NCBI RefSeq assembly: GCF_007991635.1
Contig: NZ_BJYS01000002.1
Span: 124,001-188,000 of the forward strand
DNA from: Adhaeribacter aerolatus
GTDB lineage: Bacteria > Bacteroidota > Bacteroidia > Cytophagales > Hymenobacteraceae
Length of the DNA: 64,000 bases
Direction of reading: 5' to 3'
The first letter of the stretch is position 1; each line of letters begins with the position of its first letter. Below, in pieces: positions 11,862-15,251 of this stretch. A model generated the notes under the pieces. It did not search any database, was not told the origin of the DNA, and saw only the letters and a list, made by a program, of their open reading frames with translations. The translations under genes and the position numbers were made by a program.

Positions 11862-11940
11862 TATTTAATTTTTAGATAATGCTACTTAGTTTTTCATAAT
11901 GAACAAATATTAATATAATGGAGGTATAAGTAACTCACCT

Positions 11941-11999
11941 TTGTCATTCAGGAGGAAACTATTTGGTTGTCTGCTAGATAGTTTCCTCCTGAATGACAA
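11941..11999. repeat. Dispersed palindromic repeat, copy A
   Basis: TTGTCATTCAGGAGGAAACT (11941-11960) pairs perfectly with 11980-11999 over 20 bp around a 19-bp loop. Related copies are at 16481, 47145 and 63508. It lies between the lipocalin-like gene and the first permease and could act as a terminator or attenuator inside the cluster. Confidence 0.85.
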
Positions 12000-12087
12000 G
12001 TGTGAACTCCTATAAGTTATAAGTTATTATTTGAAGTAACCAGCAATTAGCACCTAGCAATCAGCAATAAATATACAGCAATAACCC

Positions 12088-13335
12088 ATGTTTGATTTAG
12101 ATAAATGGCAGGAAATATTAGGCACGATGCGCAAAAACAAGCTGCGTACCTTCCTGACGGCTTTTGGCGTTTTCTGGGGAATATTTATGCTGGTTTTATT
12201 ACTGGGCGTTGGTAAAGGCTTGGAAAACGGCATTTTTAACCGCTTTGGCGATGGGGCTAAAAACAGCATTTTCATCTCGAACGGCCGCACTTCTTTGGCA
12301 CACCAAGGCTTAGCCCCAGGCCGCGAAATAAATTTTACGAACGATGATATTGCGGCTATTGAGCGGGAGGTAAACAATTTAAAAATTATTGCGCCCCGCA
12401 ACCGGCTCTTCGGCGAATTTACCATTAACTACCAAAAGCAAAACGGCTCTTACCAGGTATTTGGCGCTACTGACCAATTCTTTAAACTAAACGGCGAAAA
12501 ACTAAACAAGGGCCGTTTGCTAAACCCCAACGACGATCGCGAAAAACGCAAAGTAATTGTGTTGGGCGAAACTGTCAAGAATGTTTTGTTCGGCGACTCG
12601 GTGAATGCGGTGGGCGAATATGTAAATATTAAAGGTATTTACTTTAAAGTGGTAGGGATATTTAATGCCACCGGCAACAACAAAGGCCGGCGGGAAGAGC
12701 GGGCATATATTCCGTTTACCACGCTGCAAACCGCTTTTAACCAGCCCAACAAAGTGCAGATGCTGGCGTTGGTAGCCCAGGATGGCATTCCGGCCGATGA
12801 AATTGAAAAACGCGTACGCAAAGTACTGGCTACCCGCCATAAATTCTCGGAAGAGGATCCATTGGCCCTGGATGTAAACAACAACGAGCGCGAACTGAAG
12901 CAATTCAATGGCTTGTTCAGCGGCATCCGCACCTTCGTCTGGATTGTGGGCATTGGTACTTTAATTGCCGGCATTGTGGGCGTAAGTAATATTATGCTCA
13001 TTATTGTAAAAGAACGTACCCGCGAAATTGGTGTCCGCAAAGCTTTAGGTGCCACGCCTTTCTCCGTAGTAAGCCTGATTTTACAAGAATCTATTGTTAT
13101 CACGGCTTTTTCGGGTTACCTCGGTTTGCTGGCCGGCGCGGGTTTATTAGATGGCATAAGGTATTTATTAGAGTCAAGTGGGGCCGAGTTGCCCTTTTTT
13201 GCCCGGCCCGAAGTAGATGTGGAAGTTGCCATTGCCGCTACTGTTGTGCTGGTAATTTCGGGTGCTATCGCTGGTTTGGTACCTGCCCTGAAAGCTGCCA
13301 ATATTAAACCTATCGAAGCCTTACGCGCCGACTAA
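12088..13335 (+). CDS. ABC transporter permease, MacB/FtsX type (first copy)
   Basis: 415 residues with the MacB layout: an N-terminal transmembrane helix (about 20-42), a periplasmic MacB-PCD-like domain (about 45-270), then three C-terminal helices of the FtsX domain (about 285-310, 335-360, 375-400). EIGVRKALGATP, near residue 312, is a hallmark of the family. It works with the ATPase at 10727. The permease at 13896 is a paralog starting with nearly the same residues (MFDxDKW), so the pair came from a tandem duplication and may form a heterodimer. The upstream spacer is A/C-rich with no Shine-Dalgarno, usual here. Confidence 0.93.
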   Translation: MFDLDKWQEILGTMRKNKLRTFLTAFGVFWGIFMLVLLLGVGKGLENGIFNRFGDGAKNSIFISNGRTSLAHQGLAPGREINFTNDDIAAIEREVNNLKIIAPRNRLFGEFTINYQKQNGSYQVFGATDQFFKLNGEKLNKGRLLNPNDDREKRKVIVLGETVKNVLFGDSVNAVGEYVNIKGIYFKVVGIFNATGNNKGRREERAYIPFTTLQTAFNQPNKVQMLALVAQDGIPADEIEKRVRKVLATRHKFSEEDPLALDVNNNERELKQFNGLFSGIRTFVWIVGIGTLIAGIVGVSNIMLIIVKERTREIGVRKALGATPFSVVSLILQESIVITAFSGYLGLLAGAGLLDGIRYLLESSGAELPFFARPEVDVEVAIAATVVLVISGAIAGLVPALKAANIKPIEALRAD

Positions 13336-13336
13336 A

Positions 13337-13366
13337 TTGTTGAATTGTTAGATTGTTGGATTGTTG
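13337..13366 (-). repeat. Left inverted 8-bp repeat array beside the four-helix-bundle gene
   Basis: Four 8-bp units; read on the minus strand they are CAACAATC, CAACAATC, TAACAATT, CAACAA. This 30-bp block matches the inverted block at 13811-13840 at 27 of 30 positions. It begins 2 bp after the stop codon of the first permease. Confidence 0.75.
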
Positions 13367-13376
13367 ATTAGTTGTT

Positions 13377-13754
13377 ATGGAGAAAAGATATTTAAGTTTT
13401 GAGGATATTGAAGCTTATAAAGTAGCTTTTCGGTTAAGCAATATGGTGTGGGATATTGTAATACATTGGAATAATTTTTCGAAGGATACGGTAGGAAAAC
13501 AATTTGTGAGAGCAGTAGACAGTATCTCAGCAAATATTGCGGAAGGCTATGGGCGTTATACAAAAAAGGATAAGGTACACTTTTACCGCTATGCGAAAGC
13601 CTCTATTCTGGAAAGCATAGATTGGTTTAAGAAAGCGAAAAGTAGAAAATTGATTTCCGAAGAAGAAGCCAATACGATTGCGTCCGATCTAGAGAAATTA
13701 CCCCGTCTTATCAATTGGCTTATAAAATACACCAACGATAATCTAACAGTTTAA
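13377..13754 (+). CDS. Four-helix-bundle protein (23S rRNA intervening-sequence protein family)
   Basis: 125 residues. The pattern is that of the small four-helix-bundle family (IVP/S23): an early YLSFEDIEAYKVAFRLSNMVW helix region, a central FVRAVDSISANIAEGYGR, then FYRYAKASILESIDW and a final helix ending LINWLIKYTND. The family includes proteins coded inside 23S rRNA intervening sequences and is related to Avd of diversity-generating retroelements; free-standing members have no established function. There is no signal peptide. The gene interrupts a pair of paralogous permease genes and is flanked by inverted arrays of 8-bp repeats, which looks like a small insertion. No reverse transcriptase or variable repeat is nearby. 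Confidence 0.88.
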   Translation: MEKRYLSFEDIEAYKVAFRLSNMVWDIVIHWNNFSKDTVGKQFVRAVDSISANIAEGYGRYTKKDKVHFYRYAKASILESIDWFKKAKSRKLISEEEANTIASDLEKLPRLINWLIKYTNDNLTV

Positions 13755-13794
13755 AAGCACTATTTAACACCACAAGCAACTGAAATTTAATTTT

Positions 13795-13895
13795 CAACCA
13801 TTCAACACCTCAACAATTTAACAATCCAACAATTCAACAATTCAACACTTCAACACTTCAACACTTCAACACTCCAACACTCCAACACTTCAACC
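13795..13895 (+). repeat. Right 8-bp tandem repeat array (CAACAATT/CAACACTT)
   Basis: Twelve consecutive 8-bp units run from CAACCATT at 13795 to a partial CAACC ending at 13895, the base before the ATG of the second permease. Units shift from CAACAATT types to CAACACTT and CAACACTC types. The part 13811-13840 is the inverted partner of 13337-13366. The array also forms the whole 5' leader of the second permease gene. Confidence 0.85.
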
Positions 13896-15146
13896 ATGTT
13901 CGACATAGATAAATGGACCGAAATTTATGCTACGGTTAAGAAGCATAAACTACGTACGGCACTTACCGCCTTTGGGGTATTCTGGGGAATATTTATGCTG
14001 ATTGTGCTGCTAGGTGCTGGCAAAGGCTTGGAGAATGGGGTAGTGAAAGATTTTAACGTAGCGAAAAATGCGGTTTTTGTCTGGACCCAGCGCACGAGTA
14101 TTCCTTACAAAGGCTTAAAAGCGGGCCGCTTTATCCAGATGACGAATGACGACATGGATGCCATTAAACGGGAAATTCCGGAGGTAGCTATTATCAATCC
14201 CAGTACCTCGTTGGGTGGTACTTTTACCGTGAGTTACAAAACCAAAAGTTCTTCTTTTTCGGTGCGCGGCGATTACCCCGAGTTCCGGCAGGTGGAACCT
14301 ATTCTGATTTTAAAAGGCCGTTTTCTGAACCAACTCGATTTAAAAGATAAACGCAAAGTGGCCGTAATCGGGGAGCGGGTAATCGAAGTATTATTTGGGA
14401 AAAACGCGAACCCCATCGGGCAATATATTAATATTAAAAGCGCTTTTTTTAGGGTAGTGGGTGTGTCGCGGGGAACGGGCAAAGGCGAAGACTTAATTCA
14501 GAACGCCCAAACCATTTATATACCCACTACTACCTTGCAGCAAACCTACAACCAGGTAAATAAAATCGGCTACTTTGCCATGACGCCTAAGCCCGGCATA
14601 CCGGCTGCCGTGGTAGAAGAAAAAGTAAAGCAGTTTCTGATGAGCCGACACAAAGTTGACCCCAAAGATTTAAAAGCTTTCGGCTCGGCCAACATCGAAA
14701 AAGAGTTCCGGGAGGTGCAGGGGCTATTTACCGGCATTGCGGCTTTTAGTTGGATTGTGAGCATTGGAACCATTATAGCGGGCATCATTGGCGTGGGCAA
14801 TATTATGCTGATTGTAGTAAAAGAACGCACGAAAGAAATTGGCGTCCGCAAAGCTTTGGGCGCAACGCCCTGGTCCATCATTAGTCTCATTATTCAGGAA
14901 TCGGTGGTAATAACTGGTTTTGCCGGTTACCTGGGCTTGCTGGCCGGCACGGGCGTGGTAGCTTTGATTGATTACCTGATGACGAAATACGAGGTAGATG
15001 CCGGTTTCTTTTCTAACCCGGAAGTAAACGTACCCATTGCCCTGACTGCCGTTTTGCTGCTGGTTTTTACCGGTACACTGGCCGGTTTGATTCCGGCCAC
15101 CAAGGCGGCTCGCGTAAATCCCGTAGAAGCTCTCCGGGATGAATAA
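13896..15146 (+). CDS. ABC transporter permease, MacB/FtsX type (second copy)
   Basis: 416 residues, the same layout as the first permease: one N-terminal helix, a large periplasmic domain and three C-terminal helices. GVRKALGATPWSI marks the FtsX domain, and the C-terminus PATKAARVNPVEALRDE matches PALKAANIKPIEALRAD of the paralog. The start codon directly follows the 8-bp repeat array, so changes in array length would alter leader length but not the reading frame. The adaptor gene follows after 105 bp. Probably works with the ATPase at 10727 and the first permease. Confidence 0.93.
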   Translation: MFDIDKWTEIYATVKKHKLRTALTAFGVFWGIFMLIVLLGAGKGLENGVVKDFNVAKNAVFVWTQRTSIPYKGLKAGRFIQMTNDDMDAIKREIPEVAIINPSTSLGGTFTVSYKTKSSSFSVRGDYPEFRQVEPILILKGRFLNQLDLKDKRKVAVIGERVIEVLFGKNANPIGQYINIKSAFFRVVGVSRGTGKGEDLIQNAQTIYIPTTTLQQTYNQVNKIGYFAMTPKPGIPAAVVEEKVKQFLMSRHKVDPKDLKAFGSANIEKEFREVQGLFTGIAAFSWIVSIGTIIAGIIGVGNIMLIVVKERTKEIGVRKALGATPWSIISLIIQESVVITGFAGYLGLLAGTGVVALIDYLMTKYEVDAGFFSNPEVNVPIALTAVLLLVFTGTLAGLIPATKAARVNPVEALRDE

Positions 15147-15251
15147 ATTGATGATTGCGAATGGTTGAATTGTTAACGACTAATATTTACCTGACCTTTA
15201 ACAACTAACCGCTAAAAACTAACTACTAATAGCTAAACACGAATTACTTCA

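What the first reader, a model, noticed from the sequence alone, without database searches (positions are those of the whole stretch)
13337..13895. Four-helix-bundle gene bounded by inverted 8-bp repeat arrays inside an ABC exporter operon
A 125-residue IVP-family protein gene lies between two paralogous permease genes. On the left are four 8-bp units, on the right twelve 8-bp units in opposite orientation, with a 30-bp core matching 27/30 as inverted repeats. The left array begins 2 bp after the stop of permease 1 and the right array ends directly at the ATG of permease 2. This looks like a roughly 560-bp insertion unit, possibly a mobile element that uses simple arrays as ends. The right array also forms the leader of permease 2, so copy-number slippage could tune its expression. 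IVP proteins are related to Avd of diversity-generating retroelements and to rRNA intervening sequences, but such a packaged free-standing unit is not familiar to me.
Basis: partly seen in the sequence, partly recalled or inferred. Interest (0 to 1): 0.7.

Follow-up and report, generated by a model that had tools for sequence, protein, structure and literature searches.

The report
Operon-junction IVP elements with coevolving ends
A small helical-protein gene wedged between two transporter genes, bracketed by mirror-image short-repeat arrays, turns out to be one copy of a widespread family of about 450-base insertions that sit between the stop and start codons of neighbouring genes in bacterial operons and whose two ends change sequence together.

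Summary
In detail: a 125-aa IVP gene (PF05635) lies between inverted 8-bp arrays, between two MacB/FtsX permease genes. It is not a one-off. All five IVP genes of this genome sit at gene junctions beside inverted short-repeat arms, each with its own unit. Of 175 IVP loci (not a random draw), 123 have left/right flanks more complementary than all 40 of their own shuffles. The arms are mostly heptamer arrays (lag-7 identity 0.67; other lags 0.25-0.30). 108 of those 123 are called in sense between co-directional genes, starting a median 3 nt after the upstream stop. At the window's junction, four genomes of the genus (own included) carry three distinct IVP types, and a fifth, close relative has an empty 13-nt spacer. 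mraY-murD and fadA-acd junctions show full, arms-only, other-insert and short-spacer states. Unit sequences turn over faster than the protein, yet the two arms of one element stay matched; the pairs tested show purifying selection, though some copies are broken. Best reading: an mRNA counterpart of 23S rRNA intervening sequences, mobile or once mobile. Selection for an RNA stem is not shown (no G-U bias); movement, processing and IVP function are inferred.

The parts
12088..13335 (+). upstream host gene, MacB/FtsX-type permease 1
13335..13374 (+). left arm: G/T-rich octamer array (about 4-5 units), begins at the permease 1 stop codon
13377..13754 (+). IVP (four-helix-bundle, S23p-like) gene, 125 aa, pI 9.2; AlphaFold model pLDDT 94.8
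13793..13894 (+). right arm: inverted C/A-rich octamer array (about 12.8 units) ending next to the permease 2 ATG; about four units pair with the left arm in the predicted RNA fold, those nearest the ATG are mostly unpaired
13896..15146 (+). downstream host gene, MacB/FtsX-type permease 2 (52% identical to permease 1)

Best explanation
The feature is one copy of a family of about 450-nt elements made of an IVP gene between two inverted arrays of 7-bp (here 8-bp) units. Elements occupy the short stop-to-start spacer between co-directional, probably co-transcribed genes, mostly in sense orientation, so the IVP is expected to be expressed from the host operon. They are gained, lost, reduced to arms only, and replaced by other IVP types at the same junction, while often persisting vertically for long times. 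In the host transcript the arms are predicted to pair into a stem (usually 20-40 nt per arm) with the IVP message in the loop, the same layout as the IVP-coding intervening sequences of 23S rRNA, which RNase III cuts out. Proposed working: the stem is processed, so the element is silent or nearly so for its host operon, and the basic helical IVP binds its own arms or RNA. SHOWN: anatomy, prevalence, junction placement, orientation, occupied/empty/replaced sites, arm co-divergence, purifying selection in the pairs tested. INFERRED: mobility as the cause of site turnover, stem formation in vivo, RNase III cutting, IVP binding to the arms.
For: Recurrence: 5 of 5 own-genome IVPs at gene junctions with inverted repeats by eye, 4 of 5 beating all their shuffles; 123 of 175 loci overall. 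Specificity: 99th percentile 27 over 316 ORFs of the same genome, own IVPs 51, 52, 48, 24, 24. Period 7: lag identity 0.67 and 0.69 at lags 7 and 14, 0.25-0.30 at other lags. Placement: 108 of 123 sense between co-directional genes; upstream stop to arm median 3 nt (n=112), arm to ATG median 12 nt (n=112) (neighbour calls are longest-open-frame heuristics). Same junction with three IVP types plus an empty site. mraY-murD (30 loci read, of 60 genomes matched): 6 with an IVP gene or remnant, 3 arms-only, 6 with 5-18 nt spacers, 15 other. fadA-acd (30 read, of 59 genomes matched): 14 IVP, 4 GIY-YIG units, 8 short spacers, 3 other inserts, 1 unread. Arm co-divergence at fadA-acd: native pairs 30.1, swapped 17.1, best of 5000 permutations 22.7. 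The same arm in two species scores 22 at 50-60% IVP identity, while the two arms of one element average 30. dN/dS 0.02-0.12 in 15 hand-picked close pairs. Arms pair in the minimum-energy fold of 87 of 108 sense elements. Fold like 2GSC, 2RLD and Avd. rRNA IVS excised by RNase III: PMC4990558, passages read.
Against: No target-site duplication (native mean 3.68, permuted mean 3.58, maximum 3.78). No G-U preference among arm mismatches (103 G-U-compatible against 92 A-C, p 0.47) and no sense/antisense difference in duplex energy (p 0.94), so selection for RNA pairing is not demonstrated. 52 of 175 loci do not beat their own shuffles, and in the first test only 34 of 103 exceeded the 99th percentile of swapped pairs (77 of 103 the 95th). 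At mraY-murD the swap test is weak (p 0.02, n=7). Most site labels cluster on the IVP tree (34 changes, shuffled mean 73), so vertical inheritance dominates. Some IVP copies carry an in-frame stop: 12 of the rows listed, among them 4 of the 14 at fadA-acd. Heptamer arrays also occur without IVP next to start or stop codons. No expression, processing or movement data were generated.
Confidence: 0.66

Rival explanations
1. Resident regulatory module (partly compatible with the best reading): the IVP and its arrays are a domesticated part of the operon, the arms acting as a processing, attenuation or differential-stability site between the two genes and the IVP as its binding protein. No current mobility.
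For: Vertical persistence at fadA-acd (26 of 29 rows of one supported clade), dN/dS 0.02-0.12, placement at junctions of core operons such as fad, sdhA-sdhB, nuoC-nuoD, sucB-lpd, trpE-trpG and mraY-murD.
Against: A close relative lacks it at the same junction and three IVP types share one junction; the same junction can instead hold a GIY-YIG gene or other inverted-repeat inserts; some copies are broken.
Confidence: 0.3
2. DNA-level element (partly compatible with the best reading): the arms are DNA ends (inverted iteron-like binding sites or foldback ends) used by IVP or a trans-acting enzyme for transposition; the RNA stem is a by-product.
For: No wobble bias and no strand asymmetry; arms-only forms at the same junctions resemble non-autonomous copies; left arms are consistently G-rich and C-poor.
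Against: IVP has no nuclease or transposase match; no target-site duplication; units differ between elements; a strong sense bias, 108 of 123, is not expected of a DNA transposon with its own promoter.
Confidence: 0.3
3. Array background: short heptamer/octamer arrays arise by slippage at gene junctions in these genomes (as the TAACTGA arrays of PMC4679880) and the IVP merely sits between two of them; the inverted match has no role.
For: Own-genome sample of 444 kb: 10 period-7 and 5 period-8 intergenic arrays (3 of the 5 belong to the window element), against 1-2 each for periods 5, 6, 9 and 10; several are solo; all three junctions from permease 1 to the HlyD-like gene carry arrays.
Against: Non-cognate arms do not match (all 175 loci: native mean 27.0, permuted maximum 15.3); within one site native pairs exceed all permutations; ordinary genes of the same genome lack such pairs. 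Register match (0.81 against 0.68 one unit away) points the same way but is biased, because the arms had been chosen by the full match.
Confidence: 0.12
4. Invertible (phase-variable) cassette flipped by recombination between the inverted arms.
For: Inverted arms; IVP antisense to both neighbours in 5 of 123, including two orthologous loci, L028 and L038.
Against: Sense orientation in 108 of 123; arms only about 88% identical.
Confidence: 0.04

Closest known systems
23S rRNA intervening sequences (IVS) of Coxiella, Leptospira and others
   Same: S23p/IVP ORF inside an insert bounded by complementary ends; Coxiella has a 28-bp terminal stem and a 428-nt insert (PMC4990558, passages read); similar size here (median 454 nt).
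   Different: Here the host is a protein-gene junction, not rRNA; the arms are heptamer arrays with element-specific units; the IVP pairs tested are under purifying selection, whereas Coxiella S23p is described as undergoing reductive evolution; RNase III cutting not tested.
IVP- and homing-endonuclease-coding insertions in CPR rRNA genes
   Same: GIY-YIG and IVP ORFs are both found in such inserts (PMC11270868, one passage read); here both kinds occupy the fadA-acd junction.
   Different: Host is a protein operon, and the IVP units end in repeat arrays.
Avd of diversity-generating retroelements
   Same: Same fold (4DWL, TM 0.72); weak hit of a related IVP to the NCBIfam Avd model, below cut-off.
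   Different: No reverse transcriptase on the contig of any of the five own IVPs (the single RVT_1 match is on contig C5); IVP rather than Avd model fits.
Intergenic heptamer arrays such as TAACTGA in Beggiatoaceae, Cyanobacteria and some Bacteroidetes
   Same: 7-bp units close to start codons; other heptamer arrays noted in Bacteroidetes (PMC4679880, abstract and passages).
   Different: That paper follows one unit in direct arrays and holds no occurrence of 'S23' or 'intervening'; here units are element-specific and inverted around a gene.
REPIN/RAYT and other gene-plus-MITE systems
   Same: A form with a gene and a form with arms only (comparison recalled; a REPIN paper was seen only in a search listing).
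   Different: IVP shows no nuclease match; units are not shared between copies.

Membership tests
PF05635 / TIGR02436 IVP (S23p) protein family | profile score over the curated cut-off; four-helix bundle | tested here: met
   85.3 bits against 33.8; 86.3 against 24; model pLDDT 94.8, best PDB match 2GSC, TM 0.85
rRNA intervening sequence (IVS) | IVP ORF between complementary ends able to form a stem | tested here: met
   32-bp predicted stem in the window; arms pair in the predicted fold of 87 of 108 sense elements
rRNA intervening sequence (IVS) | located inside a 23S rRNA gene | tested here: not met
   lies between two permease genes; the recurrent junctions of other members are protein genes
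rRNA intervening sequence (IVS) | excised from the precursor by RNase III | not testable with these tools
   no RNA data
DNA transposon with terminal inverted repeats | target-site duplication | tested here: not met
   longest shared flank word: native mean 3.68, permuted mean 3.58, maximum 3.78; arm borders are approximate
DNA transposon with terminal inverted repeats | transposase gene with a catalytic fold | tested here: not met
   only gene is a four-helix bundle; no nuclease or transposase match
Diversity-generating retroelement | reverse transcriptase gene nearby | tested here: not met
   single RVT_1 match of the genome on contig C5; own IVPs on C2, C3, C9, C16, C41
Invertible phase-variation cassette | both orientations common | tested here: not met
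   108 of 123 sense, 5 antisense to both neighbours; read data not available

The most novel reading that the evidence does not exclude
A phylum-wide class of mobile elements whose ends are defined not by a conserved sequence but by mutual complementarity: each element carries its own heptamer 'code' in two inverted arrays, the two arrays co-evolve while turning over faster than the protein, and a catalytically inert four-helix-bundle protein together with host transcription lets the element live in the stop-to-start gaps of core operons. It would be an mRNA intervening sequence, with arms-only non-autonomous relatives.
Probability: 0.4. Interest if true: 0.9.

Novelty: new variant of a known kind. 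Interest (0 to 1): 0.8.

Why it matters
IVP/S23p proteins have been known mainly as riddles inside rRNA insertions and as 'four helix bundle protein' annotations. This gives them a consistent genomic address (gene junctions in operons), a consistent architecture (inverted heptamer arms) and natural experiments (empty, occupied, arms-only and replaced sites in related species), so their function and movement become directly testable. It also points to widespread inverted structures inside core metabolic operons of Bacteroidota, and possibly to a new way for element ends to be specified.

Tried and rejected
Rejected: chance arrays; target-site duplication; DGR membership; phase-variable inversion as the general rule; known Rfam RNA over the element (only an E 0.52 miRNA match over a palindrome at 11942-12001). 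The sigma-70-type promoter scan gave no more sites than shuffles (13 against 13.1) and is not made for these bacteria. I expected a G-U excess as proof of RNA-level selection and did not find it, nor a sense/antisense energy difference.

Literature: eight searches ran; none listed a paper on IVP genes between heptamer arrays in operons. The library holds only open-licence PMC papers, so this is not proof of absence. Papers were seen as search listings only, except passages of PMC4679880, PMC4990558, PMC10053308, PMC5787105, PMC10910872, PMC11270868 and PMC5524665.

Sampling limits: loci were not a random draw. L034-L062 and L063-L091 are the best HMM matches (one locus per genome at most); L092-L111 follow down the list; L112-L131 were picked by hand from lower in that list. 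L151-L230 are the best 80 of 570. 183 loci were collected; 2 duplicates and 6 with short flanks were dropped. Loci counted had already passed the shuffle test, and arm borders are those of the best ungapped match. The register test is therefore not truly held out. Junction classes were partly assigned by eye; G006 was mis-flagged by my script and is counted as other; of the 6 mraY-murD copies, G002 has an in-frame stop and G037 looks incomplete. The three arms-only copies were checked by score afterwards (28, 48, 46 against shuffle maxima 21, 25, 24); two longer spacers checked as well, G009 and G014, did not pass. On filing again I lowered the main confidence slightly, because of the broken copies and the biased register test.

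Full report
OBSERVATION. The window holds an IVP gene (13377-13754, +) between two MacB/FtsX permease genes. The left array (13335-13374) and right array (13793-13894) are octamer arrays in opposite orientation. The left/right complementarity score of 51 exceeds all 40 dinucleotide shuffles (maximum 24) and is the highest of 316 ORFs of at least 100 aa (itself included) in 444 kb of the same genome (99th percentile 27). The next highest, 47, belongs to a 483-aa ORF whose flanks share a different inverted repeat that is not an array.

THE SAME ARRANGEMENT RECURS. The genome has five IVP genes over the Pfam cut-off. They lie at a permease junction (window), mraY-murD, thiolase-acyl-CoA dehydrogenase (fadA-acd), trpE-trpG, and an ABC-ATPase/HlyD junction where the IVP is antisense. 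By eye each has inverted short repeats at both sides, each with a different unit. Four of five beat all their shuffles; the trp copy scores 24 against a maximum of 25. IVP genes are common: 89 of 100 genomes of the family and 113 of 148 of the phylum have a match over the cut-off. In a first test of 103 loci the native median was 30, swapped pairs 16; 77 exceeded the swapped 95th percentile and 34 the 99th, the swapped set containing relatives that share a unit. Over 175 loci (selection and losses are told under Tried and rejected) the native median is 29, shuffles 16, and 123 of 175 beat all 40 of their own shuffles: 61 of 74 in the family set, 14 of 29 in the phylum set, 48 of 72 in the named set. 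Of 9 analysed records labelled as outside Bacteroidota (Fodinibius and Balneolaceae counted), 6 pass; several are metagenome bins, so labels may be wrong. That the window's family is Hymenobacteraceae is inferred: loci of that family's code coincide with contigs of Adhaeribacter soli and Pontibacter pamirensis.

ANATOMY. Within arms of at least 20 nt from the 123 loci, identity at lag 7 is 0.67 and at lag 14 0.69, against 0.25-0.30 at the other lags from 3 to 15; 16 arms have best lag 8, the window's form. Left arms read 5' to 3' are G-rich and C-poor (814 G, 324 C). In 108 of 123 loci the IVP is in sense between two co-directional genes; 5 are antisense to both neighbours (neighbours were called by longest open frames, which can miscall single loci). 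The left arm starts a median 3 nt after the upstream stop codon (n=112, 90th percentile 15) and the right arm ends a median 12 nt before the next ATG (n=112). Median length of sense elements is 454 nt, median arm 25 nt, arm of at least 20 nt in 79 of 108.

SITES. Clustering by both neighbouring proteins gives 21 junctions seen at least twice; the largest are fadA-acd (35 loci), fadB-fadA (18), mraY-murD (7), sucB-lpd (6) and trpE-trpG (4), with nuoC-nuoD, sdhA-sdhB and mutA-mutB among the smaller ones (these gene names are my reading of the translated flanks, not profile-checked). The window's own junction was found in 5 of 8 genomes of the genus. In G019, whose permease 2 is 97% identical, the junction is empty: 13 nt between TAA and the in-frame ATG. 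G000 and G003 carry the window-type IVP (89 of 126 positions identical) with TTGTTGAA-like units. G014 carries a NIAEG-type IVP with GTTGTTA units. G024 carries a GTSIGAN-type IVP with CATTTACC units. On the IVP tree the three types lie apart: L046 (G014) and L122 (G024) each sit inside starred sets from other junctions; the window protein is a very long branch of unsure place (a quick tree on 120 columns with many open forks).

JUNCTION STATES. mraY-murD: 60 of 60 family genomes matched, 30 loci read: 6 with an IVP gene or remnant, 3 with inverted arms but no IVP (G019, G007, G001; scores 28, 48, 46 against shuffle maxima 21, 25, 24), 6 with 5-18 nt spacers, 15 other. fadA-acd: 59 of 60 matched, 30 read: 14 with an IVP, 4 with a GIY-YIG gene between a different inverted repeat, 8 with 24-69 nt from stop to the protein match, 3 with other inserts, 1 not readable. 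Thus such junctions accept unrelated small inserts.

CO-EVOLUTION OF ARMS. Within fadA-acd (35 loci, unselected) native arm pairs average 30.1, swapped pairs 17.1, and the best of 5000 permutations 22.7. At fadB-fadA (18) the figures are 24.7, 15.3 and 20.2. At mraY-murD (7), where units are alike, the effect is weak (37.1 against 31.4, p 0.02). Over all 175 loci native is 27.0 and the permuted maximum 15.3. In near relatives (IVP identity over 80%) each arm resembles its counterpart in the other species far more (64-91) than the two arms of one element resemble each other (30 on average), so arms are not homogenised quickly. At 50-60% IVP identity the same arm in two species scores 22. So units turn over, but together, as selection for pairing or a coupled copying process would give. 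A register chosen on the first half of an arm gives 0.81 identity in the second half, against 0.68 one unit away, but the arms had been chosen by the full match, so this figure is inflated.

RNA OR DNA? The window transcript folds with a 32-bp long-range stem with one interruption, z -2.7; in 87 of 108 sense elements at least half of the left arm pairs with the right arm in the predicted fold. Against RNA-level selection: arm mismatches are G-U compatible 103 times and A-C 92 times (p 0.47), and sense and antisense duplex energies do not differ (p 0.94). The level at which complementarity is kept is therefore open.

PROTEIN. dN/dS is 0.02-0.12 in all 15 hand-picked close pairs (NG86, dS saturated in several). 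Not every copy is intact: 12 of the rows listed have an in-frame stop, among them 4 of the 14 fadA-acd copies (G003, G014, G024, G056). The window IVP is basic (pI 9.2; median of 174 IVPs 8.6). Its model (pLDDT 94.8) matches 2GSC, 2RLD and the DGR protein Avd. A transcriptome table lists an IVP gene of Flavobacterium psychrophilum as differentially expressed (PMC5787105, one passage), so such genes can be transcribed.

READING. The layout equals that of IVP-coding rRNA intervening sequences, excised by RNase III in Coxiella (PMC4990558, passages), but at protein-gene junctions. The proposed chain is: host operon transcription, arm stem, RNase III cut, IVP translated, IVP binding to arms. Only layout, distribution, site turnover and selection are shown. 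Arms-only units and solo arrays beside start or stop codons may be remnants, non-autonomous copies, or the substrate into which IVP genes enter; I cannot order these events.

VERDICT. Real, not chance, not unique, and not found in the open-licence papers searched (eight searches, listed under Tried and rejected). New variant of a known kind (IVS). Interest 0.8.

Noticed in passing
window 12035-12087: Solo heptamer array (AGCAATT AGCACCT AGCAATC AGCAATA) just before the ATG of permease 1, right-arm type without an IVP.
   Followed up: partly
window 15146-15251: The junction from permease 2 to the HlyD-like gene also has a short left-type stretch after the stop and a right-type 7-bp array before the ATG, without an IVP.
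   Followed up: partly
window 11936-11999: Long palindrome (TTTGTCATTCAGGAGGAAAC and its complement) resembling the inverted repeats that flank GIY-YIG genes at the fadA-acd junction of relatives.
   Followed up: no
L280, L282, L283, L291 (fadA-acd junctions): A GIY-YIG gene (PF01541 tested for the L282 protein only) between inverted repeats of the TTTGTCATCCTGAAAGGATCT kind sits where other genomes have an IVP element; in L280 and L291 a leftover heptamer stretch precedes it.
   Followed up: partly
L299, L300 (fadA-acd junctions): Another inverted repeat without a recognised gene (GTCCCCCTTTGAAGGGGG) fills the same junction.
   Followed up: no
L150:6200-6279 (junction read as nuoD-nuoE, own genome): Solo octamer array of the window's own unit AATTGTTG directly before a start codon, with no inverted partner or IVP.
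   Followed up: partly
L028 and L038: These two orthologous antisense IVP elements have 61 and 79 nt between left arm and start codon (sense median 17.5), perhaps room for an own promoter; other antisense loci (L128 27, L220 25) do not.
   Followed up: no
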